From: a virus
DNA length: 36,678 bases
Virus record (IMG/VR): IMGVR_UViG_3300027983_000045
Coordinates: 1 to 36,678 of that record
Reading direction: 5' to 3' (one strand)
In this document: piece after piece, positions 12,037 to 28,903 of the stretch
Layout of the letters: each line of letters opens with the position of its first letter
How positions within the stretch are numbered: position 1 is the stretch's first letter
Position numbers and translations under genes: made by a program
The notes under the pieces: generated by a model
Databases searched by the model: none
Told to the model about the DNA's origin: nothing
What the model saw: the letters and a program-made list of their open reading frames with translations, nothing else

Positions 12037-12063
12037 ACCTCCCCTTAGTGAGATGATGGGTTA

Positions 12064-12525
12064 TTAACAATATTGATTAGTATTTTTTTTGTCTAGGTTT
12101 CTGAATAAATTTCTACGTTGTAATATGATTCTATTTATTTCTTTGTTCCTTTCCTTATTATTCTCTAGCTCTTCTTGTAAGTCCGTTATTTTGACTCAAT
12201 CTATACTATCTTTAGTTCGTGTCTTTCCATCATAGTTACATGATCGTACTGGTGATAATGGTTTAGTCTGACTTGGATTATGTTTAGTTCGTTTCTCTCG
12301 TTGATCGAGAGTGATCATGGTTGGGTTGTTTTTAAATGCTGTTCTATGGTAATGAACGTCTGCTCATAAGTCTGTAGTTCAATTATATCCGTAGTAATTC
12401 CAGATATCACCTCTAGTCTCATGATAAAATTTATTAAACCACGATAAAAAATCATCTCGTCTAGGATCTACTGAGTTTCTGATTACCCAGTATTTTGGGA
12501 ATCATAATTTTTCGTGTTCGGTCAT
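12064..12525 (-). CDS. Hypothetical protein with C-terminal coiled coil
   Basis: 153 residues, not recognised. The N-terminal part is aromatic (LGFPKYWVIRNSVDPRRDD, then FLSWFNKFYHETRGDIWNYY). The middle holds FKNNPTMITLDQREKRT, a motif almost repeated in the 44-residue protein at 12937-13071, and then NPSQTK. The C-terminus is a helical, probably coiled-coil segment (LQEELENNKERNKEINR). Located between the tRNA-like element and a membrane-protein gene. Confidence 0.6.
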
Positions 12526-12526
12526 A

Positions 12527-12826
12527 TTAGTTGGGTTCGTTAGTAAATCAAAGGCACAATACTTGCGTATTCATATAGCTAGGGTATAGCTTGTTTATTT
12601 TATATTGTATAACCATTTTTCTTAATCAAGTGGAGTATATCCACATAGACTGCAATCTTTGCATTTGATATGATTTTATTTCATAATTGAAGCAATCATA
12701 TCCGTTGTTTGTAATACGGGCATCTACGGTTTGAGCGTTAGCATGACCGAAGAATACAATTAGTCAGATCACTACGATAATAAAATATACAACGCAAAAT
12801 ACGATAAAGTTTTGTTTGTTTGTCAT
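12527..12826 (-). CDS. Secreted or membrane-anchored small protein
   Basis: 99 residues. An N-terminal hydrophobic segment (FIVFCVVYFIIVVIGLIVF) ending GHANAQTVDA looks like a signal peptide with an Ala-x-Ala cleavage site; the mature part holds several Cys and Tyr (NGYDCFNYEIKSYQ). Not recognised. A periplasmic or envelope role, perhaps in lysis or superinfection control, is possible. It is the first gene after the promoter at 12863-12891. Confidence 0.55.
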
Positions 12827-12862
12827 TTGTGTGTAGAATTAGTAATTAAAGTTACTGTATTT

Positions 12863-12891
12863 ATTATATCCCTATCACTTAAAAAAAGCAA
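12863..12891 (-). promoter_or_regulatory. Sigma-70-type promoter, leftward
   Basis: On the minus strand TTGCTT (12886-12891), a 17-base spacer and a perfect TATAAT (12863-12868). The flanking AATAGATTTGCTTTTTT is shared with the promoter at 15916-15944, which argues for a conserved phage promoter class. It precedes the membrane-protein, lysis and later genes. Confidence 0.8.
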
Positions 12892-12936
12892 ATCTATTGT
12901 TAATAATTGAGTAAGGTGGCTTGACAATTGGGATAA

Positions 12937-13071
12937 TTAAGGTGTCTGACTTGGCTCTTGTGTTCGCTTCTCCCAGTCATCGAGGGTGATTAGTGTGGGG
13001 TTATTTTGGAAGTTTTTTGAGAAGGTACAAACGTTCGATCATCATTTAAGTCAGATTAAATAAATACTCAT
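12937..13071 (-). CDS. Small protein sharing the NNPTxITLD motif
   Basis: 44 residues: a hydrophobic start (MSIYLIGLKGG), then FQNNPTLITLDDWEKRT and the C-terminal EPSQTP. The central motif nearly matches residues in the 153-residue protein at 12064-12525, so the two may be diverged fragments of one family. Function unknown. Confidence 0.45.
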
Positions 13072-13073
13072 AA

Positions 13074-13134
13074 GTTAATTAATACACCCTACCAATTCTA
13101 CAAACAAGGTGTATTAATTAACCCGTAAGGGTTA
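13074..13134. terminator. Large hairpins between an early gene and the OB-fold gene
   Basis: A perfect 15-bp inverted repeat, GTTAATTAATACACC (13074-13088) and its complement (13108-13122), encloses 19 bases. It overlaps a second hairpin, TTAACCC-GTAA-GGGTTAA (13117-13134), whose right arm contains the TAA of the OB-fold gene. The short one, with a GNRA-like tetraloop, resembles an RNA stabiliser or weak terminator; there is no strong U-tract on either side. A protein-binding operator is an alternative. Confidence 0.5.
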
Positions 13135-13428
13135 AAATGCAAAATCTTCTAGTTTGGGTTCACTAAGTGTTTCAATTATATATCAGTTGTTGTTCTGATA
13201 GAATCTGTAGTTGTATTCGCTTGTTCTAGCGTTAAAAGTTACGGCGACCTCTGAGCCTACTTCTAAGTGTTCTACTAGGGCAACTTTCTCTTCTCCCATC
13301 CAGTCAATCAATACACTTTCAGGATACATGTCTTTGATTTCTTCCACTACGATAGATATCTTAGGAGTATCCTTTTGTCATACAATAATTTTAGGTGTTA
13401 CTGCTTTTACGATTCATTGAAAATTCAT
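13132..13428 (-). CDS. OB-fold ssDNA-binding-like protein (DUF3127 type)
   Basis: 98 residues. The pattern GIVKAVTPKIIVGQKDTPK, VLIDWMGEEKVALVEHLEVG, SEVAVTFNARTSEYNYRFY, GYIIET matches the five-strand layout of DUF3127 proteins, small phage and Bacteroidetes OB-folds thought to bind single-stranded DNA. The acidic C-terminus (EPKLEDFAF), ending in Phe, resembles the interaction tail of SSB. Position beside the RecT/exonuclease pair supports a recombination-replication role. Family assignment is by pattern only. Confidence 0.68.
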
Positions 13429-13482
13429 GATTATAATAATAATAATATAATAAATTATTTTAGAGACTTTTCGGTCTTATTT

Positions 13483-13806
13483 TTATGATATTTCGAATAA
13501 TCAATACTTTTTAGAATACGATAGTTGATTTTTTAATGAAGAAAACAATCTAAAAAATCAGCTTGGTAATAAATCTATTTTCCGTTTTCTTTGTTTATTT
13601 ATTGATAATAATATCTCTAATATATCAGAAGATCCAAACACCATTCCAATTACATTAGTTCCTCTTACTATAATGATTTTCATATTCATAAATCAGCTAT
13701 CATGTTCTTCTTCTGTTGGTATCAATATAACACTATCGAATAGTCATATATCTTGACCTTCTCATATTTCAGGTGTAGCTAGTATTTCTTCTTTTGTTCA
13801 AAACAT
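13483..13806 (-). CDS. Hypothetical protein
   Basis: 107 residues, not recognised. An N-terminal acidic half (FGTKEEILATPEIGEGQDIG, DSVILIPTEEEHDSG), a beta stretch (MNMKIIIVRGTNVIGMVFG) and a basic C-terminus (INKQRKRKIDLLPSG). An RTCTGAYT motif (13830-13837) lies 24 nt before the ATG. The 54 bases after its stop (13429-13482) are AT-rich without a clear signal. Confidence 0.55.
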
Positions 13807-13836
13807 TTGTAGTTTATGATAATTAAATAGTCTGAC

Positions 13837-14163
13837 TTACATATCTTGTACTAACTTAGCGATTGCACTATCAATATTATCTCCTTTGCCTTGTCAGTCT
13901 CTCGCTTGATAATAAGTTTTGCTGACTTGTTTTTCGTTTGACTCTGCTTTGATTAGTTCCTCTTTTCGTGTTTGATAGAGGTCTCGATCTTCTTTGTGTT
14001 TTACGATGAATAATGCTTCAGCTTTTACTTTACTGTTTCAATCTATTACATATTGAGCTTCTGTCTCCCTGCGGATCTTGTTGGCTTTGTTAAACTCTAC
14101 TGCCACTTCTGTGAGGTGGCGTTCTGTAGTAGTTCGATAAATTAGTAATTCGTCTAGTGTCAT
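13837..14163 (-). CDS. Hypothetical helical protein
   Basis: 108 residues, not recognised. Highly charged and helical: LDELLIYRTTTERHLTEVAV, EFNKANKIRRETEAQYV, LYQTRKEELIKAESNEKQV. Length and style resemble recombination-cluster accessory proteins. ATG 14163 overlaps the 3' end of the exonuclease gene by 10 nt, so co-translation is likely. Confidence 0.58.
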
Positions 14164-14744
14164 AATTTATTGATAATTTCTAAAATCTGACTTTTTCACG
14201 ATACAAATCACTTTGCTAGCTTATCTTGAGCGTCAGGGTCAATATGTACCCTCTTGATCCGCAGTGATTGCTTGTAGTTTGGATTGTAAGCCACGAAGTC
14301 ACACCATTGGCGACCAGAGACGTACATTTGCATTTGCATCTGTCGTACGTATCCTGTGTCGATCTTACCGTTTAGTATCAGTTCAAAGTGTACTTTATCG
14401 CTTTGACATTTGATCTCCAGAAGTCATTCATTATTAACCAGTCCATCGGGACTACATCATACGTGTTCATCGTATTCAATAAATCAAACTTCTGTAACTT
14501 GATTTCCTGTTTCAAGCTCATACATTCATCTTGCAAGGGGTTCAAGCTCGTGTCATCTATCAGTGTGTGCATTGCTGTGGTGCTCTTTTTCTGCACTGCT
14601 GTAATGTTCTGACATCATCTCTTTAATGTATGTTTCTAATCATTTTCCATTAGATCCTATTGCCTGTGCGTGGCTTGCAGTCATTTTGAGTTGTCTGACT
14701 GCAAATCGTTCTGGAGTTCATTGATCTATGTTGTGGATTTTCAT
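14154..14744 (-). CDS. YqaJ/lambda-type exonuclease
   Basis: 196 residues, typical for the YqaJ family. It carries DRGHELEPLARGMYELETG (metal-site region), GCSPDGLVNNEGLLEIKC with the catalytic D and E-x-K, then YVRQMQMQMYVSGRQWCD with the Gln-rich helix. The nuclease digests the 5' strand of duplex ends to give 3' overhangs for the annealing partner, RecT, encoded directly upstream with an 19-nt overlap. The N-terminal HNIDQGTPERF also fits. Several key glycines (SGxG, GCS) are TGA. Confidence 0.9.
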
Positions 14745-15496
14745 TTGATAATTTTAGAACGTTCTAAAAGGTAATTGTCCAAATCTTTTCATTTTCATGT
14801 GTTGTCTGTTGCGTATTTTCTTAGTGCATCAATATCATCAATTAAATCAATTACAGATTTGTGGTCAATATCTATGTCTCAGTTATCTAATGAGTGGTTT
14901 TGATTATCTTGATCTTCGATTGTTTCAAATATATCGTTAAAGTGAGTTTTGCATGCTTTTTTCATTACCGTTTTCATACACATCTCGGCAAACCACGCAC
15001 TCCAGATATAATCTTGTTTTGCTGTTTTTCTGTGTTTTTCAAGATCTAACTTTCAAAGAGTTGTTAAAAACTCTCATCTTTTGTTTTTGATTACAACGTA
15101 AGCTCATACAATGTTATCATCTTTTTTTGCAAATGGATCAGCGATATTGTGTGTGTAGTTTATTGATCAACTAGATTTATCAAATTTGATATCATCTCAT
15201 TCGTGGACTAGTTCTATATCAACCATTGACTCGGGATATGCTAGTAGCATCATATTCTTAAGTGCTACGTAATCATAGCTTATTCATGTTGATTGTATAC
15301 TAATATGTTTTCAGTCTAGGTGTAAGCCTGTTTGCTTTACTTGCATAAAGTAGTTTATATATTGATCATCCAGAACATTCTTAGCTCGTGGGTTTATTAG
15401 AGTTCAATCTCTCTTTTTTTCTGTTTTGAGTTTTGTTACATATCTTATGTATAAGTCCACTAATTTATTGTCATATGATGATAGTTGTTTTTGCAT
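14726..15496 (-). CDS. recT: RecT-family single-strand annealing protein
   Basis: 256 residues, near the RecT norm of about 270. The core is GAYVVIKNKRGEFLTTLGKL, DLEKHRKTAKQDYIWSAW and FAEMCMKTVMKKACKTHF, matching the conserved block of RecT/Redbeta-type annealases. An acidic C-terminus (DIDIDHKSVIDLIDDIDALR) follows. It anneals the 3' overhangs produced by the adjacent exonuclease, driving phage recombination and concatemer formation. It is read from ATG 15496; its stop lies inside the exonuclease start region. Confidence 0.9.
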
Positions 15497-15520
15497 AATA
15501 TAAATATTCATAATAAATAA

Positions 15521-15793
15521 TTAGTCTCAATTATAACTCCTACTTGATACTTCTGTTGCTTTATATTTTCTGTGATCTGCATATTCTTTTTTCTTCCATT
15601 CTGGTCGTAATGTTTCACGATCATATTCTATCTCGTGTGCTTGTATTGGTAAGTCTCTAGTGTCGTATCACAATAGTCTTGATTGATATTCTCTTAGAGT
15701 TTTTCTAATATTTTGTCTTGCTTCACCTGTTACTTCTCGTTGTTTTTCGTCTAGTATGTGGCACTGTGCTTGTAGTCGTTGATCGTAGGTCAT
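15521..15793 (-). CDS. Hypothetical charged protein
   Basis: 90 residues, not recognised. Strongly charged and helical (MTYDQRLQAQCHILDEKQRE, NIRKTLREYQSRLLG, RPEWKKKEYADHRKYKA). An RTCTGAYT-type motif (15821-15828) lies 28 nt before ATG 15793, in the ACCAATG start context shared by several genes here. First substantial gene after the promoter at 15916-15944, upstream of recT. Confidence 0.57.
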
Positions 15794-15826
15794 TGGTGTA
15801 GAATTGGTAATAAATACTTGGTCTGA

Positions 15827-15901
15827 TTAGCTCGAGTGTCTTGCACTACTGGTGGCTGGTCAGAGATTATCAGGGTACTTCGTGCTGGGTAGCTCCTCCA
15901 T
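15827..15901 (-). CDS. Possible leader peptide
   Basis: A 24-codon ORF (MEELPSTKYPDNLGP and onward) that begins about 15 nt after the -10 box of the promoter at 15916-15944. It could be a near-leaderless message or an upstream peptide; there is no support beyond position and an intact frame. Confidence 0.3.
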
Positions 15902-15915
15902 AACTTGATGTTCTT

Positions 15916-15944
15916 ATTATACACATTAGGTTGTAAAAAAGCAA
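15916..15944 (-). promoter_or_regulatory. Sigma-70-type promoter, leftward (recombination genes)
   Basis: Minus strand: TTGCTT (15939-15944), a 17-base spacer and a perfect TATAAT (15916-15921). It shares AATAGATTTGCTTTTTT with the promoter at 12863-12891. It lies between the 70-residue gene and the recT block and should drive recT, the exonuclease and following genes. Confidence 0.82.
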
Positions 15945-15964
15945 ATCTATTTTATTTTTTATAT

Positions 15965-16177
15965 TTACTTATTATAATTAGAATATATAATCTTACTATC
16001 ATATCATAGATCGTATAGTTTAACTAGTGTTTGGTCATTTATTCATTTTCAAGAAAATATTCTTTTTCGCATTCAATACTCTAACTTTGTTCTTTTTTCT
16101 AGTTTAGATGCATCTATTGTCTCGTATAGATATTTTGTCTGTTGTAATAGATTATCTAAGTTTATTTTGTGGATCAT
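15965..16177 (-). CDS. Small hypothetical protein
   Basis: 70 residues, not recognised; Lys/Tyr/Leu-rich with a helical N-terminus (INLDNLLQQTKYLYETIDA) and a C-terminal DLGYDSKIIYSNYNK. An RTCTGAYT motif lies 21 nt before its ATG, overlapping the upstream stop. The stop is followed by the promoter for the recT block. Confidence 0.55.
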
Positions 16178-16193
16178 TTATTTTTATAAATAA

Positions 16194-16544
16194 TTAAATC
16201 TGACTTTCGTCAATGTTGGCTAAGAAGTAATCTAGTTTTTGATTTGCGGTGAGCATAGAAATCGCCATATAATGGTATTGTAATTCTTGTACCCGAGTAT
16301 CCTCGATATAAATAAATCCAAATGATTCGTCCGTTGGTGTTCTCCACTTGACCGCTTCCATGAGTCAACTGTCTATAGATAAAAGTTCGTGGTAAGAGAT
16401 AGATTTATGGTTTCAGTTTATGAAGTAAATTAGATTAGATGGATAACACTCTCGCTCATCGTATTTAGCAAAATCTAATAGTTTTCATTTATGAGATGAC
16501 TCGTACTTTTTGATGATTAGCTTTAGTTTTTCGTATTTATTCAT
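16194..16544 (-). CDS. Hypothetical protein
   Basis: 116 residues, not recognised. NKYEKLKLIIKKYESSHKG at the N-terminus, aromatic SNLIYFINGNHKSISYHELL in the middle, and SFGFIYIEDTRVQELQYHYM further on, ending ESQI. An RTCTGAYT motif (16571-16578) lies 27 nt before the ATG, with an ACCAATG start context. Sits just downstream of the PrimPol-helicase gene. Confidence 0.56.
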
Positions 16545-16563
16545 TGGTTGTATAAAAATAAAG

Positions 16564-16611
16564 TTATTTAGTCTGACTAGGTTGTGTTTTATTACTTATA
16601 TTAATTGGCAT
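16564..16611 (-). CDS. Fifteen-residue peptide ending PSQTK
   Basis: The frame MPINISNKTQPSQTK starts inside the stop region of the PrimPol-helicase gene and ends before the next gene. It is too short to be confident, but the terminal PSQTK recurs at the ends of other small proteins here (EPSQTP at 12937, KASQTK at 20473), so either the peptide or its DNA is conserved. Confidence 0.28.
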   Translation of the reverse strand: MPINISNKTQPSQTK

Positions 16612-16615
16612 TGTT

Positions 16616-18400
16616 TTAAGGGTTATAAATAATACGTTCTCTATTCTCTCGTCTGAAGTTAACTTCTGTTTTTTTAGTGAACTTATCTTTTGTTAGTATT
16701 GCCTTTGTATATCTTACATCGTCATAGTCATCGGTTTCCATAGTCATAGTTATTAATGTATTTGATAAGTTAAGTATCTTTTTGGATCACTCCATTACTC
16801 AACTCTTATTGGTGTGATGTAGTTGTACTATGGTTACTCATGTTTTCTGACATAGCTCTTGTAGCTTTATCATAGCTTTGTTCTGGTTACTGTATGCGTT
16901 CTCATCACTATTACCGTTTATCATTGAAAATGTATCAAGTATAATAAATCAGTATCATTCTTTATTTTTATCTAATATCATTTGAACTAAGTCATCAAGA
17001 TCTATTCATCAAGGTTTATTAGCATAATCGAAATTTCATAGATAGTTTTTAACATAAGCATTAAGTTTTTTCTGCTCTTCTGGACTTAATGGGTCAAGAT
17101 CAGTTATGTTTCTTTTACGCTTTCAATTCATAAATAACCAATTGTTTGTGGCTACTTGCTCGATTCCAAACTCTAAGTTTATGTATAGACACTTTTTACC
17201 TCTCTTAATGTTCCTTGCGATCATATCCATAGCAAATGTTGTTTTACCAGTGTTAGACTCGGCGACTATTGTTACAAGCTCACCACTCATAACACAATCA
17301 AAAGTATCGTCAAATATATCATCTGGGAATAAGTATCATTGTATCTCGAAATCCCTAGTTTCTATCTCTGTTTGTTCCGTAAGCTTCATAGATGTGTTGA
17401 TGCTATACTTACTAGCAAACCAATCAATTGTTGCTTTCCTGTCTCAGTCCATCATCTCAAAACATATAAGCTCAAACGGTGTAAATGTTGTGCGTGTAGT
17501 TTTTATCAAACTAGATCATTGATTGTACACTACGTTGTATGGTTTATATACGTATGCTCACATGTTCTTGTGTGGCTCTTTAAGAGTTATGACTTCTCCG
17601 TCGTCCTGCGTTGCAGTCACTCACCGTACATATTCTGCTATTTCTTGTACAGGTATAGAGTTGATCTCTGTCCACATATCGTCTGACTTCTTGTACGTTC
17701 CCTTAATCTCTCTCTTTGCTTCAACCTTTTCCTTTTTTTCTTTGGCTTCTTCTTCCTTATACATATCTGCAAGCTGTTCTAGCATATCAAACGTTTCACT
17801 GTCTTTGTCTTCGAACCACAATATCTCAGCTTCTGTTGGTCATAAATCATATTTAATTAACTTAGTCTCTTTCTTTCTTGGGTTTATAGTTCATGGTAAT
17901 CTCATTATTCTCGATAAGTTTGTACACGCTGGGTCACAAACAAATCATAGATCTTTTATAATGTGATTTATATTACTCTGTAATTGTTTTATTCAGTTTT
18001 GATAAACTGATCTTTCAAACTCTCTCTCTTTACCCGTCCAGTATATGTGTAATCAATTTCAGCTGTCCACTAATGCACAATAATCATCATATCACTTAAG
18101 TGAAAGCCTTACTACAATCTCACCAAACACTTTTCTCATGTCTTCTTGGCTAATAACCTCTCATGTTGCTAGATAGTGATCATTTCTTATGTCAATATCA
18201 ATAGCTAAATATTTCTTTAATCATATATCGCTATCATCGCAACGCTTATCCATTTGGCTTTTTATACCTCAGCAGAAATATATATTACTTTTACCATTAG
18301 TTTCACTAAACTTAACTGGAGCATTTAGGGTGCTCACTTGCATATTGCTTGTTCCTTTAAGGTGTTTGAGAAAATCAATCACTTTTTGTTTATTTTGCAT
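16616..18400 (-). CDS. PrimPol-type primase fused to a DnaB/RecA-fold helicase
   Basis: 594 residues. N-terminal archaeo-eukaryotic primase domain: YLAIDIDIRND with the DxD metal site (Asp68, Asp70), DSGNGLHIYW with the SGxGxH motif (113-118), and NLSRIMRLPGTINPRKK (about 161-177), the R-L-P-G-T-x-N motif of phage primases. A charged linker (EEEAKEKKEKVEAKREI) leads to a RecA-fold ATPase: GELVTIVAESNTGKTTF (Walker A, about residue 385), FIILDTFSM (Walker B) and GVTIVQLHHTNKSG. Together they should prime and unwind the phage origin. TGA supplies glycines inside SGNG, G-V-T-I and others. It overlaps the upstream initiator by 11 nt. Confidence 0.9.
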
Positions 18401-19241
18401 TGATTATGGAGTTATGCAATAAGGTTGTTTTTTCATCTCTTATTTCCTTAAATATTAATTTTCAATCAAACTGAGGAAAACTTTCGCCAAATCATCTCTT
18501 TGCTTCTGCATTCTTTCAATCAAGTATTAGTTTTCTACATACTTCTTTTATTCTATTTTTCATCATTACTGGATTGTGAACTAATCACTTAACCCATCTT
18601 TGACTTGCTTTTACATATTGTCAGCTAACTAATCAATAGATAATTTCAAATTGTAACAGTTTAGCTTCTTGTATAATAATTATTTTATCTACCTTGCTTT
18701 CTTTATATGAACTATATGTTTTCTTTTTGTCTCATGATCTTGCGTGGGGGAACTGCTTTCGGAAGCTTTCAAAATCATCTGAATAAGAAAACACACCTTT
18801 ATTAATTGTATTACTATCTTCTTTTTGTTCTTCTCATTCTTTACATTCTTTAGTTGTTGTTATTTGTTTGTTGTTTGTTTGTTGTTTGTTTGTTGGTTTG
18901 TTTGTTATTTGTTTGTTATTTTCACAATCTAAATCATTGTAATCGCAGTACTTGACTAGTGTTATCATAGTATATTTGTTTGTTGATTCCTTTGTTATTT
19001 CGTTTGTTACAATTAGCTTATCTAATGATAATCTTATTTTCTGTGGTGATAGTTTTAGATCAGTTGCCAGATGCTCAATACTAGTGATAAATGATCATCT
19101 TAATATTGTGATTCAACGCCAACTCTTATCGGAGTGATTAGCAAGTAAAGTACAATGTAAAAATAGTCTAACTGTATTTGCATCAGTATATCGTTCTCGT
19201 TCTGTGATCTTCCTATGTAGTTTAATTCGTCAGATACTCAT
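18390..19241 (-). CDS. Replication initiator / replisome organiser
   Basis: 283 residues. The N-terminal winged HTH (GRIKLHRKITERERY, LRGSFITSIEHLATDLKLSP, KIRLSLDKLIVTNEI, KYTMITLVKYCDY) is the classic start of phage replisome organisers that bind the origin. An Asn/Thr/Lys/Gln linker encoded by an 11-nt repeat follows. The C-terminal part (SDDFESFRKQFPHARSG, QRWVKGLVHNPVMMKNRIKE) resembles the distal domain of these proteins, which contacts the helicase or its loader. It sits directly upstream of the PrimPol-helicase and directly downstream of a structured leader RNA. Confidence 0.82.
18863..18918. repeat. 11-nt minisatellite in the initiator linker
   Basis: Five units of TTTGTTTGTTR on the plus strand, at 18863, 18874, 18885, 18897 and 18908; the third unit carries one extra G. 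The repeat encodes the Asn/Thr/Lys/Gln linker of the replication initiator. Because 11 is not a multiple of 3, gain or loss of one unit would shift the frame and truncate the C-terminal domain. Confidence 0.85.
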
Positions 19242-19260
19242 TTTTTTGTTCAAAAATAAA

Positions 19261-19384
19261 AGCCCTATGCACAATCCTTGCGAGAAAGCTATAGGGCTTT
19301 ATTCCGTTTGTTTAGATACCGTAGTGATCTAACTTTCATTGTGTCTACCCACAATTTTCAAACTCAAACGGGTGCAAGGATTGT
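19261..19384 (-). ncRNA. Pseudoknotted leader RNA ending in a terminator, before the replication genes
   Basis: Five helices can form in the minus-strand RNA. b: ACAATCCTTGC (19374-19384) with GCAAGGATTGT (19271-19281), 11 bp. c: CCGTTTG (19365-19371) with CAAACGG (19304-19310). e: 19350-19355 with 19338-19343. d: 19327-19332 with 19312-19317. a: AGCCCTAT (19291-19298) with ATAGGGCT (19261-19268). The order b5', c5', e, d, c3', a5', b3', a3' makes helices a and b a pseudoknot around a multi-hairpin core. Helix a is followed by a U-rich tract and, 20 nt on, by the initiator ATG. A TATAAG box (19400-19405) lies just upstream, with TTGCAA 14 nt before it. It looks like an attenuator or riboswitch; no known class was recognised. 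Confidence 0.72.
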
Positions 19385-19438
19385 TTTATCTGTTCCTATC
19401 TTATACAATAATTTATAAATTGCAAGTCTATTTTTGAT

Positions 19439-19648
19439 CTAGTCATCATCTGCATCATCTCAATCTACTGGTAATATTCTGGAAAAGCAAACACACGTTC
19501 AGGCGAAGGGTCAGAAAAATATAAACATAAATCTAGCTTCTTGTAACGAGAATATAAAAGCATAATCATTTGCTACATATGCGGTCATCAACCACAACAA
19601 ACAACACCACACAACAAATAATAAAAGTCAGATTAAATAATTTTTCAT
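19439..19648 (-). CDS. Small membrane protein
   Basis: 69 residues. Two hydrophobic segments (IGLLLFVVWCCLLWLMTAYV and ARFMFIFFGPFAGTCVCF) and an acidic end (DGDDADDD). Not recognised. It is the last gene before the structured RNA; the 3' end overlaps the region from which that RNA is transcribed. Confidence 0.5.
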
Positions 19649-19674
19649 GATAATAATATAATAATAAATAAAGT

Positions 19675-19890
19675 CTATTGTATGTATAATAAGATCATAG
19701 AAAAAATCAGTAATATACCTCAAAAAAACATAAAAGTCATAGATATAAGTGTACACAATTTCAACCAGTCAGGCATTTCTAACCATCCTCAAACGCAAAG
19801 CCTTGATACTATACAAAAAAACTCAAATAAAGTAACCAGAAAAATAAAGTAAATAACAAATTGATTAAAGGGTGAAATTAGATTTTCCAT
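19675..19890 (-). CDS. Small two-helix membrane protein
   Basis: 71 residues with two membrane segments, FVIYFIFLVTLFEFFCIV and LCTLISMTFMFFGGILLIF, joined by VGGWLEMPDW. Unknown family. The minus-strand frame is preferred to a 56-codon plus-strand ORF over the same bases (19682-19852) because it fits the direction and gene density around it and uses TGA as Gly. Confidence 0.5.
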
Positions 19891-19933
19891 AATAATATAA
19901 GAATAAAATAAGGCAATATAGCCATTACTACCA

Positions 19934-19960
19934 AGTAGGTAGTTTATGGGTAGGTTACTT
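19934..19960. repeat. 27-bp direct repeat, copy 1
   Basis: Identical to 20441-20467. It contains GTAGGT twice and the core TTTATGGG. This copy sits just after the stop of the 74-residue gene, within the 68-base gap (19891-19958) that otherwise holds nothing recognisable. It may be a regulatory site or the scar of a duplication. Confidence 0.8.
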
Positions 19961-20183
19961 AATTTCTTCTAAGTACTTTAAGTGTTATTGTGTCCGTGTT
20001 GTAGTTTAACTTGTTGTATACTACTATTTCTTCTGTTCCATTATTGAACATAGTGACTCGACAATATGTAGGCTTTCATGATCATTCTTTGCTTATTTTT
20101 CATTGGTCTATTGCTCTTTTGATGAATCCGAAAGCCTTTACGTCATCTATGTCGTCATCTATTTCGATTATAAATTTTTTCAT
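19959..20183 (-). CDS. Small hypothetical protein
   Basis: 74 residues, not recognised. Acidic N-terminus (MKKFIIEIDDDIDDVKAFG), then FIKRAIDQGKISKEG and a beta-rich end (RVTMFNNGTEEIVVYN). Its stop overlaps the first base pair of the 27-bp repeat. Confidence 0.55.
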
Positions 20184-20208
20184 TGGTGTTTTATAATATA
20201 TAATAAAA

Positions 20209-20472
20209 TTATTTTCTCCACACTCAGTCCTCATAATAGTATTCATCATATCATCCAGTTAGTATCTGACTCATTTCTTTAATAAAATGGGGCGTATGGC
20301 ATTGACCGTTAATCGATAAGAGGCGTATCAGTTGCTCTACTGGTGTGTCGTTGTCGAATACTCTATGAAAATTTACATGGAACTTCTCATCTATTGATAC
20401 CTTGTTTATTTTCTCGTTTGATCCGTTCTTAGATCTTGGGAGTAGGTAGTTTATGGGTAGGTTACTTGATAA
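20209..20472 (-). pseudogene. Headless ORF after a 27-bp repeat
   Basis: 88 open codons in the same frame as, and directly after, the stop of the 86-residue gene. They read LPINYLLPRSKNGSNEKINK, VSIDEKFHVNFHRVFDND, and further on FIKEMSQILTGGYDEY, which look like real protein, but there is no ATG, GTG or TTG until very late. The 27-bp repeat covers the expected start. The head may have been lost by recombination between repeats, or an unusual start or readthrough of TAA may be used. Confidence 0.4.
20441..20467. repeat. 27-bp direct repeat, copy 2
   Basis: Exact copy of 19934-19960, 507 bp away in the same orientation. It follows the stop of the 86-residue gene and, if the headless ORF is real, encodes its first residues. 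Bases flanking the two copies differ, so the repeat boundaries are sharp. Confidence 0.8.
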
Positions 20473-20733
20473 TTATTTGGTCTGACTTGCTTTTCGTATT
20501 TCCTTTATTTCTTGTAATGCTTTTTCTTTTTCTTCTTTGGTTGTATAACCTCAGCACAATATATCAAGATAGTCTTCTCTCCATTTTCAATGATCATTTA
20601 TCTTGTAAAATCATTTTAATTGTTTGCTGTAGGTTTTTTCTTTGCTTTTCCGTGGTCTGGTTATTTTGTATATAAGTATGTCTGAGGATATACATTTAGT
20701 TGCGACTTCTTGGATTGTCATTTGGTTATCCAT
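20473..20733 (-). CDS. Small hypothetical protein ending KASQTK
   Basis: 86 residues, not recognised. MTIQEVATKCISSDI resembles a short N-terminal helix pair; the rest is basic and helical (YKITRPRKSKEKTYSKQL, KEEKEKALQEIKEIRKAS). The end SQTK and its DNA recur in other small genes of this region. First or second gene of the early leftward unit. Confidence 0.55.
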
Positions 20734-20738
20734 AATAT

Positions 20739-21083
20739 TTACTTACGTGATAAAGAAGAATTCTGACCGTATCTTTTAACGTTGATTAGTGTCTTTGGGC
20801 TACTATGTATGCCCATTAGTCTCTCTAGCTCGTCCTGTGTCAGGGACTCACCTAGTAATGCGGGTTTTCAGCCCACTATTTTGTGGAGTGTATTCAGTTT
20901 AGTTTCAAGATTTATAGCTCTTAGGAACTTCCCCATTTTCATATAGGTGAATAAGTCGGATTTCCTAGAGTCGTCTCTAGTTCGTTTGTAGTTAGTTTTC
21001 ATTTGTAACTCATATAAACAATAAAGCGTCTTTAAAAAAAGAAAACCTTGGTTTGTGTCAGAATACTTTATATTCGTTTTCAT
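20739..21083 (-). CDS. First leftward early gene, unknown function
   Basis: 114 residues. Basic N-terminal half (KTLYCLYELQMKTNYKRTR, DDSRKSDLFTYMKMGKFL), then LGESLTQDELERLMGIHSSP, a stretch that could be part of a DNA-binding helix bundle, and a C-terminus KRYGQNSSLSRK. It is the first gene after the strong promoter at 21186-21214, a position often held by host-takeover or regulatory proteins. No family recognised. Confidence 0.55.
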
Positions 21084-21185
21084 CCATTGATTGGATAATT
21101 TTTACTACTCACCCTATATTGTAAATGTAAAGTGGTCAATCTACTTTTGTTAACATAATTATTTATTTAATAATAAAGTAATACC

Positions 21186-21306: not shown

Positions 21307-21335
21307 TTGCAAGTACAAAGTTATTGACTTATAAT
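21307..21335 (+). promoter_or_regulatory. Sigma-70-type promoter, rightward
   Basis: Plus strand: TTGCAA (21307-21312), a 17-base spacer and a perfect TATAAT (21330-21335). It is the only convincing rightward promoter and precedes the sole rightward gene by about 160 nt of leader. Confidence 0.82.
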
Positions 21336-21370
21336 TGTGTTTTATATTTGTAGACTATTTATCACGAAGT

Positions 21371-21470
21371 CTTTCTTTGTAAGAAAACTAATACTATTAA
21401 GCGGGGTAAGGTCTGGTAATCAATCAGTGGCTTACCTAACTCTCTGTGCCACTGGTGCGGAGTTTTTTTA
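21371..21470 (+). terminator. Leader with terminator and alternative stem (attenuator-like)
   Basis: After a small hairpin (TTTCTT-tgt-AAGAAA, 21372-21386), the leader has GGTAAG (21405-21410) pairing with CTTACC (21431-21436). It then has a terminator CTCTGTGCC-ACT-GGTGCGGAG (21442-21462) followed by seven U (21463-21469). Bases 21423-21430 (ATCAGTGG) can instead pair with 21449-21456 (CCACTGGT), which would break the terminator. This is the mutually exclusive layout of an attenuator or riboswitch. It could equally yield a short stand-alone RNA of about 130 nt. Confidence 0.65.
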
Positions 21471-21504
21471 TTTGCAATCAACAATAAGTTTATTATATTA
21501 AGTT

Positions 21505-21834
21505 ATGATTGAAAAACTAAAACCACTAATAATATTAGACGATCAAGCATACTCTAGTTATGTATGGGAGCTTGCTGCTACTACAGATATGTATAATGAA
21601 GTTATCAAAGATTTGATAGTAGAGAATTATGTATCTCATAAAATAGAATATCATCCATGATCAGAAGATGAACCAGCAAGAATAACTATTCCTGTTAACT
21701 TCTTAGGTAAGTATATTGTTCATCTTGTTAATGATATGGTTTCTCATGTTGGTCAATCTCAATGATGGGAGGGAACAGAAGACCTAATAAGAGAAACCAT
21801 TGGATTAAGTCAGGTTAAAAGATTTACTAAATAG
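21505..21834 (+). CDS. Only rightward gene; putative regulator, unknown
   Basis: 109 residues, not recognised. Acidic, starting MIEKLKPLIILDDQAYSSYV; includes WELAATTDMYNEVIKDL, ARITIPVNFLGKYIVHLV and SQGWEGTEDLIRETIG, ending with a basic KRFTK. The two TGA codons (HPG and SQG) show it too uses code 25. Solitary divergent position behind an attenuator-like leader suggests a control function, but there is no recognisable DNA-binding motif. It ends before a bidirectional terminator. Confidence 0.75.
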
Positions 21835-21926
21835 ATAAAATATGCTTCGATTGGCTTAGTTTAGTGGTCTTTTAACTTCTAACGGGCGTTTATAGTCTCC
21901 AGGGTATAATCTATCCTCTTGAATAC
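21835..21926. other. Gap between convergent genes
   Basis: 92 bases between the stop of the rightward gene and the shared terminator. No ORF. It has a superficial tRNA-like look (CTTCTAA loop) but no complementary arms; nothing further is supported. Confidence 0.5.
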
Positions 21927-21954
21927 AAAAACCTATCTCAGTGATAGGCTTTTT
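21927..21954. terminator. Bidirectional terminator
   Basis: CCTATC (21932-21937) and GATAGG (21943-21948) form a 6-bp stem with a 5-nt loop, preceded by AAAAA and followed by TTTTT. It can stop the rightward gene and the leftward late transcript, whose last gene ends two bases away at 21956. Confidence 0.85.
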
Positions 21955-21955
21955 G

Positions 21956-22798
21956 TTATTTCAATAGTCAGTTTCTTAAAAAACCTAATTCAGTTTGCAT
22001 CTTACCAACAATATCAGTCTCGTCAGTAGGATTATCAAATGTATAGATATTATATGTTGGCTTTCAACCATTATTGATATGTACTGATAATTCTGCCTTC
22101 CATGATTTCAATACTTCTAATCTCAAAGGTGTTGAAAAAAGTGTGCCGTGTTCTGGTAAATTATTCATAGGTATAATTATCTTAGGTATATAAAAGTAGC
22201 AATTATAAAACATGTTTCAAGATTTTATTTTCTCAGCAAGATCTGGCAACTTGTATATGTTTGTTTTTCTCTGCTTGTAGTTATCTACGGTAATGAGATC
22301 GGTTCAAGGTTGTTTTGCAAACCTAATACAGTGTCCATAGGTTCACTTACCCCAATCATTAGTTGCTACCGATCCATCATCGTCACGGTCGTCGTTATAT
22401 ACTTTATTTCAGCTATATCATGCTACTAAATGATATCACCTTTTGATTGCCTCCCAGAAGTCGTCAGATCATATCTTACAGCTTACGTATGATACATCAT
22501 CAAACTGGTCGTATATAAGTTTAACCGCCATACTTACCCATCGTCAGATACTTATATCTAGTCACCTATCGATAGATTGGTCTACAATGTCATATCTATG
22601 TATCTCAGATATATGATTACCAGTAGATGCAACATAGGAAGCCATGGAAGCATATACAGTGCAAGTGTTGCGTTGATACTCGTTTTGATCTAGCTCGACA
22701 AGTGTAGGTGTAATTGCTGGTACTTTATCCCAGTCAACCATCCCTCACATCCTCCGATCAGATTCACTGTACATCTCTAACGCTCATCATTCACTCAT
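21956..22798 (-). CDS. Putative papain-like/C39-type cysteine protease
   Basis: 280 residues. DQNEYQRNTCTVYASMASYV has the Gln and nucleophile Cys (C46) arrangement of papain-fold peptidases; GTYGHCIRFAKQPG provides the His and DLITVDNYKQR the Asn/Asp. DFWEAIKRGYHLVAGYSG fits the intervening helix and strands. Substrate unknown: a late-expressed protease might mature virion proteins or attack host proteins. It is the last gene of the leftward late unit. The catalytic triad is inferred from order and spacing. Confidence 0.68.
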
Positions 22799-22807
22799 TT
22801 AATTGTT

Positions 22808-22963
22808 TTATTTGATAAAAGCTCATGTTATAGGTAATACCCTACACAAGTATATTACTCTAGCTCTGGGGTTTTCATATACTACTCTAGTCTTTGGCGA
22901 TACGCTATAACCTATTATATAGAATATTCAGCACATTACAATCATAATAATTAGTTCTTTCAT
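22808..22963 (-). CDS. Small single-span membrane protein
   Basis: 51 residues: N-terminal membrane helix (LIIMIVMCGIFYIIGYSV) and a basic cytoplasmic-type tail (RVVYENPRARVIYLCR). Not recognised. ATG 22963 overlaps the 3' end of the HNH gene, and it lies before the cysteine protease. Confidence 0.5.
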
Positions 22964-23451
22964 TTGCTTAGTAATAGATAAATTTCTTTTGTTATTTCTT
23001 TTTTTACTTCAAGATACTTGCTGTGTGACTCATGAAACTTATATGATAGTGTGTTGCCTTTTGGTTCTCGTTCTCATAATATATTGTCATTTGACATCCT
23101 CATATATTGAGTAGCCCAGTATTGTACCATATTAAGCATCGAGTCCATATGTATTTTTTGGAGATGTCTTGGCAGTTGATGGATTCTTGAGAAATATTCT
23201 TTTTGTAGGTCTCACCATAGATCTATGGTTTCTGGCTTAGTTATGATATGGTGATTGGTTTTCTCTTTTATTTTTCTTACTTTATCACTGTAGAACCTCA
23301 TAGGTATATCCAGTGTGTCGTGTATTTGCTTATGATCTCGATCAATCACTCTAGCAAAGTTTTGTTTTAGGTCTTCACCGCCAGTGCTGATGGGGATGCA
23401 ATGATGCTTGTGGATCGATCAATTAGGCTTTATCAGATTGTTTTCAGCCAT
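22951..23451 (-). CDS. HNH-type nuclease-like protein
   Basis: 166 residues. The N-terminal part SIHKHHCIPISTGGEDLKQN, then FARVIDRDHKQIHDTLD, shows the H-H-x-x-P-x-x-x-G-G, Asn and distal His pattern of HNH nucleases, but without CxxC zinc pairs. A long helical, charged C-terminal part (EYFSRIHQLPRHLQKIHMD) follows. Function in the phage unknown. First gene after the promoter at 23518-23546. Confidence 0.62.
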
Positions 23452-23517
23452 TAACCTAAAGTAAGATATATAATACTTATTAAAACAATTCAAATATTAA
23501 TCATATCGAATACATCC

Positions 23518-23546
23518 ATTATACCCATTAGTGGTAAAAATAGCAA
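23518..23546 (-). promoter_or_regulatory. Sigma-70-type promoter, leftward
   Basis: Minus strand: TTGCTA (23541-23546), a 17-base spacer and a perfect TATAAT (23518-23523). It sits in the 110-base gap between the BhlA-like and HNH genes and would drive the HNH, small membrane protein and protease genes. Confidence 0.82.
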
Positions 23547-23561
23547 ACTATACTATTTGAC

Positions 23562-23792
23562 TTATTTGTTTTTGATTTCAACTAATGTATCTTCAATATT
23601 ATCAAGTCTTTCACCTATGTTTTGTGTTACTTTATCTACCGTTTCTTTGAAAACTATAGTCAGTATTCCGACTTGTTGTCTATGATCTTCATATACACGA
23701 TCCATAAATTTATAAAAAAAATAACTTACCACTATAAGTATAGTGAATATAGGTCATTGGCTTAATATCTCTGTTATAATTTCTGGTGTCAT
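23562..23792 (-). CDS. BhlA/UviB-like holin candidate
   Basis: 76 residues. N-terminal membrane segment (SQGPIFTILIVVSYFFYKF) followed by an amphipathic helix (YEDHRQQVGILTIVFKETVD, then QNIGERLDNIEDTLVEI). This is the layout of BhlA/UviB bacteriocin-associated and holin-like proteins. It lies in the tail-gene arm, far from the lysozyme, so it competes with the 60-residue protein at 11727-11909 for the holin role. Confidence 0.6.
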
Positions 23793-23853
23793 AATGGTTT
23801 AATATAAATAAATCATGTCCGTCCCTCACATATCAAGGAGCAAGATGATCCAC

Positions 23854-24291
23854 TTATAATCGTTTCATCCAGACTAGGTATCAAAACCATTTTACTCATG
23901 TGTACATCATGATGCGTTTCCGTTTTTTTACCGTGTCCGCTTCCATGGGTACATAAAACATGTGATAATCGACAAATGATCTGTAGCTCATGTTTGTAGG
24001 TATAAGTTGTTTTGCTTGCAATACAAGATATATTTTGTAGATTTTTTCTCTACCGTCTGTATATCCATAATCATGTAGTGCTGCTGACTTGATCGTGTCA
24101 GCCTCTACTTTTTGTAGTATCATGCCGAATATCTTGGGGATGCTTGCACCGTCAAACATAAACCCAGCAGGTACTTTGACCCAATATCCACTTCACTCAA
24201 AAAGTAACTCAAACCGTAGATCCTCATAAAGTAACCACAGATTCAGTTCCTTGACTGGAGTGATGGAGCAGTGCTGAGTAAATGCTGACAT
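23854..24291 (-). CDS. DUF1353-family protein
   Basis: 145 residues. WVKVPAGFMFDGASIPKIFG and IKSAALHDYGYTDG match the two conserved blocks of DUF1353 (x-V-P-A-G-F-x-x-D-x-A-S-I-P and H-D-Y-x-Y), small phage proteins found near tail genes and suspected to be peptidases. The rest is basic at the C-terminus (KKRKRIMMYTGVKWFG). The 61 bases downstream (23793-23853) show no clear gene. Confidence 0.78.
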
Positions 24292-24307
24292 ATTTGCAAG
24301 TTATAAA

Positions 24308-24787
24308 TTAAGCATCTTCCGCTCCAGAAAGTTCCCCTCTTGCTTTGGCGATGACATAAGAGAAATTAGCGATTACTGCAAGTAGTTCTTCTGCTAGTAC
24401 ATATTTATTCTCATTTATCCATATGTCTTCGTATTCTCCAGTATTTACGGTCTCAGTCCGAGCATCCATTGCTGGTACGGTGATCACTGGCTCTTCTGCT
24501 TCCTCTCATTCTGCTAGTTCTTCTGGCACAGAATACTGAGCAGGCTTTGCTGGATGATTTACTTCTTTCAGGATTTCTCTCTGCTTGTATCTTTTAACAA
24601 GATCTCATCTGAGTATCACCGCATCTCAAACACGGTTCCCTATTGGATCTTCGTGCATAGCTTCTTCTGAGAGATAACCCCAAAATACGATTACTCATTG
24701 CTTATTTTTGAAGTCGATATTGACCTCTGATAGCGACCAGTGTCATACTGATAATGGTCATTGACTTAATTGTTTTGCTAATCACAT
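24308..24787 (-). CDS. Hypothetical tail-arm protein
   Basis: 159 residues, not recognised. GPLSVGHWSLSEVNIDF and FWGYLSEEAMHEDPIGN at the N-terminus, a basic helix (DLVKRYKQREILKEVNHP), an acidic centre (PEELAEGEEAEEPVITVPA) and a helical end (LAEELLAVIANFSYVIAKA). Placed between an adhesin and DUF1353, it may be a fibre-assembly or baseplate accessory. Confidence 0.55.
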
Positions 24788-24813
24788 GATAATGTTGGCT
24801 AATAATAAATAAT

Positions 24814-26376
24814 TTATTCAAAGAATCTCAACCAATCTACTCTGTTATAGTTTTCATAATCGAATCAGTATCTCAGTTTCAATATCAAATCTTGTCACAA
24901 TCAAGCTGTAAATGTGGATCTATGTGTGTATGTTGATATATCAGTAACTGTTGTTGTATCATTGTATCTCGTGATTCTATAAATTCAATTATTGTAGTAT
25001 ATCTCATATACAAACCGTCCTGTAAATCATCATGAAGAAGAGTATTCAGATCATTGTGTCGTTCAATCTCATATTCCACTAGTTCATCAATAACTACTTG
25101 CAGTAGTCATATTAATATAGTGTCATGGATTTTTATTTCGATTTGTGGTTTCTTGAACTGGAAACATTCATCCATTTACATTGAATACTTGATCTCATCA
25201 TCGAGTACTAGACTGCAGATACATTCTTACTTGACACTTCCACTCTCATATTGCTGATATGTTTTTCTTGAGATGTCCTGCTCAATCACTTCATCATCAA
25301 GCTGGATATAATAGTCATCATGTTACTCATAATCCATTCCCATATGATATTACATTTGACCATCCTTCTGTTGTAAATTCTGCTGTACTATCAAAGTTTT
25401 TAGTATGAGCAGCGATAGTATGGTCTAGCAGTGTAGGACGCACAAAAGCAGGATCACTCACAGTATATTTTTTAGCATAGATCCAATCCCAAGTGGAGTT
25501 ATATCATTGTCATGATAACACATTATCATATCTATATCATATCGTTATGGGTTCAGAAGATACTGTATTTGATATACTTGTTATATCGTGTGATGAGACT
25601 CAAGTCGCATAGTTTTTTATATTTATCCTCACCAAGTTTGATTTTATTTTTATAGTTTGTAGTATATCTACATTATCTGCTATAGCAGGTGCTATATCTG
25701 GTCGACTGGAGTCGTTTCTATAGTAGACAGTTCAATTGTGATCTAAAATACCAATTCAATTACTAGAGCCTATATAAGTACCAAGTGACATATGTCAGCT
25801 AGTAGATTTGCTTATAGTTTTTGTAAGTGTAACCATTTCTACTCAATCACTCAGTGTAACTATCGAACTTAATCTACCTGTCGTATTGCTACCATTCAGC
25901 TTATCTCACGATACAGAAAATCAAGTGCCATTGACTACTGTTCGTTTTCAAGTATCTATTGACGCTCCTACAAAATCATCAAAGAATATAAAAGTATTTG
26001 TACCATTACACACATTGCTCGTGTCCCCAGTGACTCACATATAAATATCTTTTCCTGTGTCGAGATTTTCAGTAACTTTAACCCAGATCTTCGCTAACTT
26101 GTTGGATCAAGATCCTGTGACATTTTCTACCCAAAACGACAACGGTGTTGATTGGTCGCTGGAGTAAAATCTAAGACTACCACTGATTCATTTTCCAGTC
26201 GGAAATAGTGTAGCTAGTGAGTCCACATGAAACTGGTGTCAAGATGATCAAGATGATTGTCATATTAGTAGACTAACTTGATAATTCGTGCCTGCACCTG
26301 CTGATCAAGAAATTGACAACTTAGTTAGTCATCAACTTGTCGACCACATAAATGCTTGCATCAATCTCCTAGACAT
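24814..26376 (-). CDS. DUF2341/ConA-like tail adhesin
   Basis: 520 residues. The N-terminal module (GAGTNYQVSLLIGQSSG, LRFYSSDQSTPLSFWVENV, NKLAKIWVKVTENLDTGKDI, NTFIFFDDFVGASIDTG) is the DUF2341 pattern, ending in the FFDDF motif that leads into a concanavalin-like lectin domain (about 160-330). The C-terminal half has repeated beta strands and Gly/Ser-rich loops (TASSYGGTSGIGDGTTQG) ending LRYGFDYENYNRVDWLRF. Surface glycan binding is the known role of such modules. ATG overlaps the upstream fibre stop (ATGTCTAG). The TGA-rich frame is chosen over another open frame within it. Confidence 0.78.
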
Positions 26377-28903
26377 AGGCTTTTCAGATATTGAGATAAA
26401 AGTTTGTACCATCGTAGTATAATGTTGCTATATCTATTGCACTTGCGGTCGTAGATAATGTAGTTCATGATGGTTTCTTTACGCTTGCTGGTCGTGTTGC
26501 TGTTTTGCTACCAGTGACATCTTGAGTTAGTTTGAGTACATAAGTCTGACCTACTGTCGGATTATTCAGCGTGAAAGTACAGTTTCCTGTCATGCTTAGC
26601 TTTTGTGCTGTTCAGTTGTTGAGGTCGATTGTCTTAGTTGTTCCACTGGTTCAAGCATCATACTCATTGCCTGCTGACTCGCTGGGTACTCGTCATGTTG
26701 TACCTGTCCCTGTGGATTTCTTCCATAGATTACCATTGTTTTTATCTCTATAGACCGATCATATATTAGCAGTGACCACTCAGTTTGGTATTCCAGTTCA
26801 TACTGACTCAGTAGTTCAGTCTTGGGATATTGCTCAATTTACAATCGGAGTTGTTAGTGTTTTGTTTGTTAGTGTTGATGTACTTGATACCGTAGGAATT
26901 TCCACACCACCAACAGATAGTACTCACGCTGATGTGACTCTCATTTTCTCTCATAGGACTGAAGCCAAATGAGTTGAAAATACTAGATCTCAGTTTCATG
27001 CTGATGTTCTAACAACATGAACTCCTCACCAAGCAGCTCATGTGCTTCCAGCACCAAATACCATTCAAGTATAACAATTAGGGTATGTGGTGGTATTGGT
27101 TACGTCTCTCATTACAAACTGCTTTTTGTCGTTGATTAGATTAAAGGTTCAAGTTCGGTTTGCATCTGAGTTAGAGAGAAGAAATTGTGTGGAATTGGGG
27201 AGGACTTGTGCGGGATTGATTGTTCAAACTGTTATTGTCGTTCAGAATAGTTGATCCTCTGTAAATGTATTAGTACTAGCAAGATTAGCTTTGAGATTGT
27301 TTGCGGTGGTTGCAAATGCTGTAGTAGCTATCTGTGTTGTGTTAGTTCCTGCTGTTGCTGTTGGTGCTGTTGGAGTGCCTGTTAGTGCTGGAGATGCAAT
27401 ATTGGCTTTTAGATTAAGAGCTGTTTGTTGTGCAGTAGATACTGGTTTATTTACATCAGTTGTATTGTTCACGAGATCTAGTGTAAGTGCACTAAGAAGT
27501 CAGGTCCTTGTTACTGACCCAGTGAGACCAACAACCGCTTGAACCGCATCTGTTTGATCGTGTTTGCTCCGGTTAGGGGCGTAAGTGGTAGTAGATGCGT
27601 TGTTTACCACGGATATAATATTGTCTCCTATCGCAAACTCCACACCATTGACTGTACCAGCCACAGACACATAATAAAACCGCCCAATTTTAGCAGAACC
27701 ACCTCATGGAAATGTGCCCGCTGAAGCATTCCAATCTCCCTTGTAGATCATCCCGTTTGCAAGAGCCGCAATGTCTGCATCCATTGTATCGAGGTTGACT
27801 GCTTGAGTTACGGTAATATGTCATACTTTTGTACTTGCAGTCGCATCAAATGATATTTTATCGTTGTTTGCTGTGATATCAGATGCTTGACCTGCTGTGA
27901 TACCTACTTTATCGTTGTTTGCTGTGATATCAGATGCTTGACCTGCTGTGATACCTACTTTATCGTTGTTTGCTGTGATATCACTCTCCATTGTATCGAG
28001 GTTGACTGCTTGAGTTACGGTAATATGTCATACTTTTGTACTTGCAGTCGCATCAAATGATATTTTATCGTTGTTTGCTGTGATATCAGACACATTTATT
28101 CCAGAGTCTTTGATCAGCTTTCCTGTGGCTCAATCATAGAGTGTAATATTATTATTGACTGAACTTGCTGGTCAGGTTACATCTCATGATCCTACTCATG
28201 TTGCAGTCACTATCGGGTTTGCTGGGTCTGCACTATCTACAGTTATCCCTGCACCAGCTACGACTGAGGCTACTCATCCTCCTCAACCAGATCCTCATGA
28301 CCTTCATGGTATAACTATCTTATTTAGTTTACTTTTAACATAATTTCTAGTTTCTTCTTTTGTGAAAGTATTATCTTTAGTCACAAAGTTCTTATCCATC
28401 GCTCCCGAAACTTCATCCCTTGTAGGACGATCACTGATTTCATCTTTTATGTTAGCAAATTGTTTATCTATCCCTTTGATTTCTGACATCTCATGACTAT
28501 GTTTTTTCTCCGCTTTCTTAGCGAGGTTTTGTAGTGTCTTGGTATTATATACCTTTTGATCTTCTTTGATGCTCCTGAGCTCTGAGTCAACGGATGCAAG
28601 CACCTTTGAGGGCATCTTATCCAACTCTTTCTTAGTAGATTCGAGGCTTACAATCTTCTTATCAATATCTTTTACTTTTTGACTTAGTCACTTAGACAAT
28701 CAAGTCATATACTCTCATTCTCTTTGTGCAGAAAAATCTGATCTTTTGCCCTTAAATCAATTAAGAACAGCGTATCAGAAATTGTCAAGTTCTCACAACT
28801 CATAGCTAATATTGTTTCTATCCAATAGTTTGTTGAGTTGTTCTCTTGTAAGTTGAGAACTCGCAAGTTCTTTTATGTACTCCGCAGAGGTCATCTTAGC
28901 CAT
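26369..28903 (-). CDS. Long tail fibre with internal repeats
   Basis: 844 residues. The N-terminal 200 residues form charged coiled coil (QKVKDIDKKIVSLESTKKE, LQNLAKKAEKKHSHEMSEI), then a Gly-rich hinge (PGRSGGSGGGGGVASVVAG). A repeat region with SDITANNDKVGITAGQA units follows, then the fibre motif KANIASPALTGTPTAPTA. The C-terminal domain is NGVVTANIGSVYRDKNNGNL and NPTVGQTYVLKLTQDVTGS, ending ATLYYDGTNFYLNIGKAYV, a very common phage fibre tip. Its stop overlaps the adhesin start. A trimeric side fibre is likely. Confidence 0.85.
27780..28090. repeat. Nested 104-bp and 51-bp repeats in the fibre gene
   Basis: A 104-bp unit occurs at 27780-27883 and again, identically, at 27987-28090. Between them a 51-bp unit is present twice in tandem (27881-27931 and 27932-27982). 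The 51-bp unit is 17 codons, so copy number can change without breaking the frame. This looks like recent duplication within the fibre shaft. Confidence 0.9.

What the first reader, a model, noticed from the sequence alone, without database searches (positions are those of the whole stretch)
19261..19384. Pseudoknotted structured RNA ahead of the replication operon
Five nested helices, including an 11-bp long-range stem and an 8-bp terminator stem whose loop carries the partner strand, make a pseudoknot ending in a U-tract 20 nt before the initiator ATG. This is far more structure than chance in AT-rich DNA. It could be a riboswitch, an attenuator, an antisense-controlled replication switch or part of the origin.
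Basis: partly seen in the sequence, partly recalled or inferred. Interest (0 to 1): 0.8.

Follow-up and report, generated by a model that had tools for sequence, protein, structure and literature searches.

The report
Pseudoknotted RNA terminator before phage initiator
Phages that read the stop codon UGA as glycine carry a knotted, self-terminating RNA directly in front of their replication-start gene; its letters change almost completely between phages while its shape is kept, so it is probably an RNA gate on when and how much the phage replicates.

Summary
The window is a virus record using TGA=Gly (code 25; host presumably Gracilibacteria/Absconditabacteria), and the downstream gene is a DnaD-like replication initiator (ATG 19241). 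The RNA has an 11-bp stem A, nested stems B/C, and a 10-bp terminator stem D whose 22-nt loop carries A's 3' strand (pseudoknot), then a U-tract. Given D, helix A has p about 5e-5. No Rfam family fits.

In four code-25 phages the initiator region could be read, and all have a structured RNA ending in a terminator just before the initiator ATG; about ten standard-code relatives lack the pseudoknot. In the nearest code-25 relative (initiator 72% identical over 127 aa) the RNA sequence is mostly replaced, yet D aligns without gaps with 10/10 pairs kept (4 double, 2 single changes), the loop is again 22 nt, and helix A is re-formed (9 bp): compensatory change, from one relative. A phage with 92% identical terminase has a different initiator and a different RNA of similar kind.

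Best explanation: an attenuator in the leader of the replication operon, possibly also releasing a small RNA. It works like P4 CI/IsrK or type III toxin-antitoxin leaders but is a member of none tested. Mechanism is inferred, not shown.

The parts
19398..19425 (-). candidate promoter TTGCAA-N16-TAAGAT of the RNA
   Evidence: sequence; TTGCAA-N16-TATAAT (at most 1 mismatch in the -10) occurs 12 times in the code-25 phage sequences at spacing 16, mostly 1-4 (maximum 9) at other spacings; the window's own -10 is 4/6, so weak
19374..19384 (-). helix A 5' strand ACAAUCCUUGC
   Evidence: p 5e-5 given D
19365..19371 (-). helix B 5' strand CCGUUUG
   Evidence: fold
19338..19355 (-). hairpin C1
   Evidence: fold
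19312..19332 (-). hairpin C2 (UUAGAU...AUCUAA)
   Evidence: fold
19304..19310 (-). helix B 3' strand CAAACGG
   Evidence: fold
19291..19300 (-). terminator stem D 5' strand AAAGCCCUAU
   Evidence: 10/10 pairs kept in L081 with 4 double changes
19271..19281 (-). helix A 3' strand GCAAGGAUUGU, inside the loop of D (pseudoknot)
19259..19268 (-). terminator stem D 3' strand AUAGGGCUUU
19252..19258 (-). U-tract UAUUUUU
   Evidence: sequence
18390..19241 (-). DnaD-like replication initiator / helicase loader, code 25, ATG start, no Shine-Dalgarno
   Evidence: phrog_2514 E 8e-22; 72% identical to L081 initiator over 127 aa
18857..18921 (-). 11-bp tandem repeats inside the initiator gene, candidate origin iterons (inference)
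   Evidence: TRF
16616..18400 (-). primase/helicase, next gene
   Evidence: phrog_239 E 2e-27, Pfam AAA_25

Best explanation
A transcription attenuator in the leader of the phage replication operon. RNA polymerase starts at a promoter just upstream (or arrives from the early operon), makes the about 140-nt pseudoknotted RNA, and mostly stops at terminator D just before the initiator ATG; only read-through makes initiator and helicase. Helix A is completed before D's 3' arm is transcribed and holds the terminator loop, so whether D closes (and termination occurs) depends on A; the released RNA, carrying the loop-complementary segment, may also act in trans on new transcripts. Shown computationally: the structure, its conservation in shape but not sequence, the terminator, and the lack of a convincing promoter or Shine-Dalgarno between terminator and ATG. 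Inferred: the promoter, read-through, the switch, any trans action, and timing or copy-number control of replication.
For: Pseudoknot far above chance. Compensatory change in L081: D 10/10 pairs kept with 4 double and 2 single changes, 22-nt loop kept, A re-formed with 9 bp, while the gene start just downstream is 48/60 nt identical. All four code-25 phages where the initiator region could be read have a leader RNA plus terminator before the initiator (window, L017, L080, L081), with pseudoknot p 5e-5, 0.05, 4e-4 and 1.5e-4 in that order. In the sequence blocks of G001, L080 and L081 that hold the leader it is the most stable 130-nt segment. Only two terminator-like sites were found on the coding strand of the window, and this is one. 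The relative G001 with about 92% identical TerL has a different initiator and a different RNA of similar kind. 0 of 34 long ORFs in the window have an SD-like motif before their first ATG, so control by hiding an SD is unlikely. If A and D excluded each other, their folds would be nearly equal in energy (-38.2 and -36.1 kcal/mol), which suits a switch.
Against: No transcript data. The window promoter is weak by consensus. L081 is the only relative where pairs can be aligned; in G001 the A pairing is marginal (p 0.05) and competes with a stronger hairpin; in L080 the pseudoknot has another topology. The direction of A's effect on termination is not known. A free-standing small RNA gene would look much the same.
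Confidence: 0.5

Rival explanations
1. A free-standing trans-acting small RNA gene (for example an RNA decoy or antitoxin-like RNA against host defence) whose terminator happens to lie before the initiator; the initiator is expressed by leak or from another start.
For: In L081 the same intergenic region appears to hold two more terminator-ended RNA units, one with an abiF-like core (25.3 bits, E 0.055, below the gathering score of 37). A promoter-RNA-terminator-gene order with read-through is shown for the AbiF antitoxin RCd22 (PMC12373285). The window has another possible promoter-RNA-terminator unit on + 21307-21470.
Against: The element sits directly before the initiator in all four phages and differs where the initiator differs; the window RNA has no abiF or other credible Rfam match; no toxin or defence gene among the ten early-region proteins scanned; the L081 extra units do not fold much better than chance (z 0.04 and -1.84).
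Confidence: 0.22
2. A plain intrinsic terminator of the upstream early genes, with incidental extra structure.
For: Standard-code relatives L002-L004 have a simple terminator at the same place.
Against: Helix A is far above chance in two phages and re-formed after sequence replacement; no convincing promoter follows the terminator, which would leave the initiator gene unexpressed.
Confidence: 0.15
3. Part of the replication origin or a replication primer RNA.
For: Position beside the initiator and candidate iterons.
Against: The repeats are inside the gene; U-tract terminator fits transcription control; no sequence shared between leaders that an initiator could bind.
Confidence: 0.08
4. Metabolite- or protein-binding riboswitch.
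For: A pseudoknot overlapping a terminator is a common riboswitch layout (general knowledge).
Against: No conserved core between the leaders of homologous initiators; no credible Rfam match.
Confidence: 0.05

Closest known systems
P4 CI RNA / C4-type phage leader RNAs and Gifsy-1 IsrK
   Same: Small structured RNA made from the leader of a phage regulatory or replication operon, terminator, read-through into the operon; in P4, pairing between CI RNA and leader segments causes premature termination and blocks the replication genes (as described in PMC4825925)
   Different: No Rfam match of that kind here; the complementary strands lie in one RNA and one of them is the terminator loop; no lysogeny evidence gathered; unrelated phages and hosts
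Type III toxin-antitoxin leaders, e.g. RCd22-AbiF
   Same: Promoter, structured RNA, Rho-independent terminator, then an ORF reached by read-through (PMC12373285)
   Different: The ORF is a replication initiator, not an RNase toxin; no abiF motif; no repeated antitoxin units
Plasmid pT181/pIP501 rep attenuators
   Same: Conditional terminator in the leader of a replication initiator (general knowledge)
   Different: Those use a convergent antisense RNA; no opposing promoter was listed here

Membership tests
abiF RNA (RF03085) | covariance model match | tested here: not met
   no abiF hit in window 19200-19450 at E<=5
Type III toxin-antitoxin | downstream endoribonuclease toxin | tested here: not met
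   downstream gene is a DnaD-like helicase loader; no PADLOC hit
Type III toxin-antitoxin | promoter-RNA-terminator-ORF order | tested here: inconclusive
   terminator and ORF order met; promoter is only a weak consensus match
P4 CI / C4 antisense RNA | match to a described RNA family | tested here: not met
   no Rfam family reaches its gathering score in the region
P4 CI / C4 antisense RNA | leader RNA ahead of a phage replication or regulatory operon with premature termination | tested here: inconclusive
   position and terminator met; termination itself untested
Plasmid antisense attenuator | convergent antisense promoter over the leader | tested here: inconclusive
   none listed on the + strand over 19240-19400 by consensus scan, which is weak evidence
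Riboswitch | conserved ligand-binding core across homologues | tested here: not met
   18/47 identical positions over the terminator half between window and L081, the rest not alignable with confidence
Intrinsic terminator | GC-containing hairpin followed by U-tract | tested here: met

The most novel reading that the evidence does not exclude
A new class of pseudoknotted terminators, conserved in shape but not in sequence, that gate replication in phages of UGA-recoding CPR bacteria and are exchanged as a module together with the initiator gene.
Probability: 0.3. Interest if true: 0.75.

Novelty: new variant of a known kind. Interest (0 to 1): 0.55.

Why it matters
Little is known of gene regulation in phages of Gracilibacteria and Absconditabacteria (my assessment; the one phage survey read, PMC10746230, does not use the term non-coding). 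A leader RNA that keeps its shape while losing its sequence, and differs where the initiator differs, would give a testable handle on how such phages time replication, and shows that RNAs of this sort are invisible to sequence searches. It can be tested in vitro with a purified polymerase, without the host.

Tried and rejected
Standard code (short ORFs only), TAG=Q, TAA=Q and ciliate codes: rejected; TGA=Gly scores better than TGA=Trp in Pfam for helicase and RecT and recovers the TerL N-terminal domain. Exact search for part of the RNA in viral contigs and a blastn search in phage records: none. Concatenated RNA query against 353 Gracilibacteria-class genomes: the listed hits were almost all in T-rich low-complexity parts, uninformative. 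A 16-nt match of the RNA in the L080 phage is antisense to a coding gene: chance. Hit L078 in a class genome is normally coded with a purine-rich ribosome site: probably contamination, not used. Genome scan with TerL: no relatives; class search with TerL found one 34% match with 11 in-frame TGA, so no host assignment. L082 is GC-rich and probably standard code, not used. Weak Rfam hits (mir-454, U1A PIE, trpB) are far below gathering scores: chance.

Full report
Check. The element lies on the minus strand. The window is one IMG/VR virus record of 36,678 bases. Under table 11 it has almost only short ORFs; reading TGA as a residue opens long ORFs nearly all on the minus strand. Gly scores better than Trp in Pfam for the primase/helicase (50.2 against 40.7 bits) and RecT (50.4 against 45.2), and the TerL N-terminal domain is found only with Gly, though its C-terminal domain scores slightly better with Trp. 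Code 25 is that of Gracilibacteria and Absconditabacteria, many of whose phages share it (PMC10746230); the host itself is not shown.

Anatomy. Helix A 19384-19374/19281-19271 (11 bp) encloses B and hairpins C1, C2; stem D 19300-19291/19268-19259 (10 bp) has a 22-nt loop containing A's 3' strand, so A and D form a pseudoknot with linkers of 73, 9 and 2 nt; U-tract to 19252; ATG 19241. Nested folds are 3.6 to 3.9 sd below shuffles. With D fixed, A is matched in 0 of 20,000 shuffles. The motif scan finds this one site in the window and none in 20 resampled sequences. A caution: that scan's null rarely makes terminators at all, so one search is the fairer test.

Surroundings. The downstream gene is a DnaD-like helicase loader/initiator (phrog_2514) followed by a primase/helicase, RecT and a YqaJ nuclease. 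Tandem 11-bp repeats lie inside the initiator gene, as in other phage origins (general knowledge; inference). A full-consensus promoter at 21214 (minus) could drive the early genes through this RNA. On the minus strand only two terminator-like sites were found, at 21274 and 19262. SD-like motifs were absent in 34 of 34 long ORFs (a crude count that takes the first ATG and includes ORFs that may not be genes).

Relatives. Viral-collection and phage-record searches gave two groups. Standard-code phages with related initiators (L002-L004, L019-L026, about ten records, L002 and L003 nearly the same) have short upstream gaps or a simple terminator, and the motif scan finds no pseudoknotted terminator before their initiators. 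Patterns demanding in-frame TGA, and TerL, found code-25 phages: G001 (L016/L017), L080 and L081. All have a leader RNA and terminator right before the initiator ATG. G001: A GGGUGGU/ACCACCC, D 9 bp. L080: two crossing helices of 8 pairs each (one with a G-U) inside a 14-bp terminator stem (p 4e-4). L081: A UCACCCUCC/GGAGGGUGA, D ACGUGG/CCACGU. The leader is the most stable 130-nt segment of the sequence block folded (about half a genome each) for G001, L080 and L081, but not in the window.

Covariation. Window and L081 initiators are 72% identical over 127 aa and their gene starts are 48/60 nt identical. Just upstream, the terminator halves align without gaps with 18/47 identical positions, yet all ten D pairs are kept: four double, two single changes; both loops are 22 nt; A is 11 and 9 bp with six of nine pairs (counted from the outer end; A is shifted by 1 nt against D) doubly changed. 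This is one pairwise comparison, not a family-wide test. G001 shares several structural genes at 85-92% protein identity with the window but has an initiator with no detectable similarity and a different leader RNA, so RNA and initiator appear to be exchanged together.

Mechanism. I favour a leader attenuator with possible release of a small RNA. P4 CI RNA and IsrK (PMC4825925) and RCd22-AbiF (PMC12373285) show that such layouts exist: RNA, terminator, read-through. Which way A acts on D, and whether the RNA acts in trans, is open. The free-standing RNA gene is the strongest rival, because L081 may have two further RNA units beside it, one abiF-like below threshold.

Limits.

Noticed in passing
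window 11955-12028 (-): tRNA found by Rfam (41 bits) but not by ARAGORN; by eye the anticodon loop is about 10 nt and contains UCA, which could fit a UGA-reading tRNA. Not resolved.
   Followed up: partly
L081:8432-8560 (+): abiF-like RNA core (RF03085, 25.3 bits, below cut-off) in a phage; whether this phage has an AbiF gene was not checked; possible orphan antitoxin-like RNA.
   Followed up: partly
L118, L119 (genomes of the Gracilibacteria class searched): abiF RNA above the cut-off lies beside an ORF that looks by eye like AbiF/Abi_2, in 2 of the 3 genomes with a hit among 288.
   Followed up: partly
window 21307-21470 (+): Promoter-like site, RNA and terminator unit; its terminator loop GCCACUG can pair with CAGUGGC upstream; the fold itself is not exceptional (z -1.4).
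   Followed up: partly
window 8844-21101 against G001 21483-33465: The replication module is in opposite orientation relative to the structural genes in the two related phages.
   Followed up: no
code-25 phages (L016, L017, L089-L092, window): TTGCAA-N16-TATAAT is enriched as a promoter form, 12 sites at spacing 16.
   Followed up: partly
window 27857-27983: Perfect 51-bp tandem repeat, 2.5 copies, in a tail-fibre-like gene.
   Followed up: no
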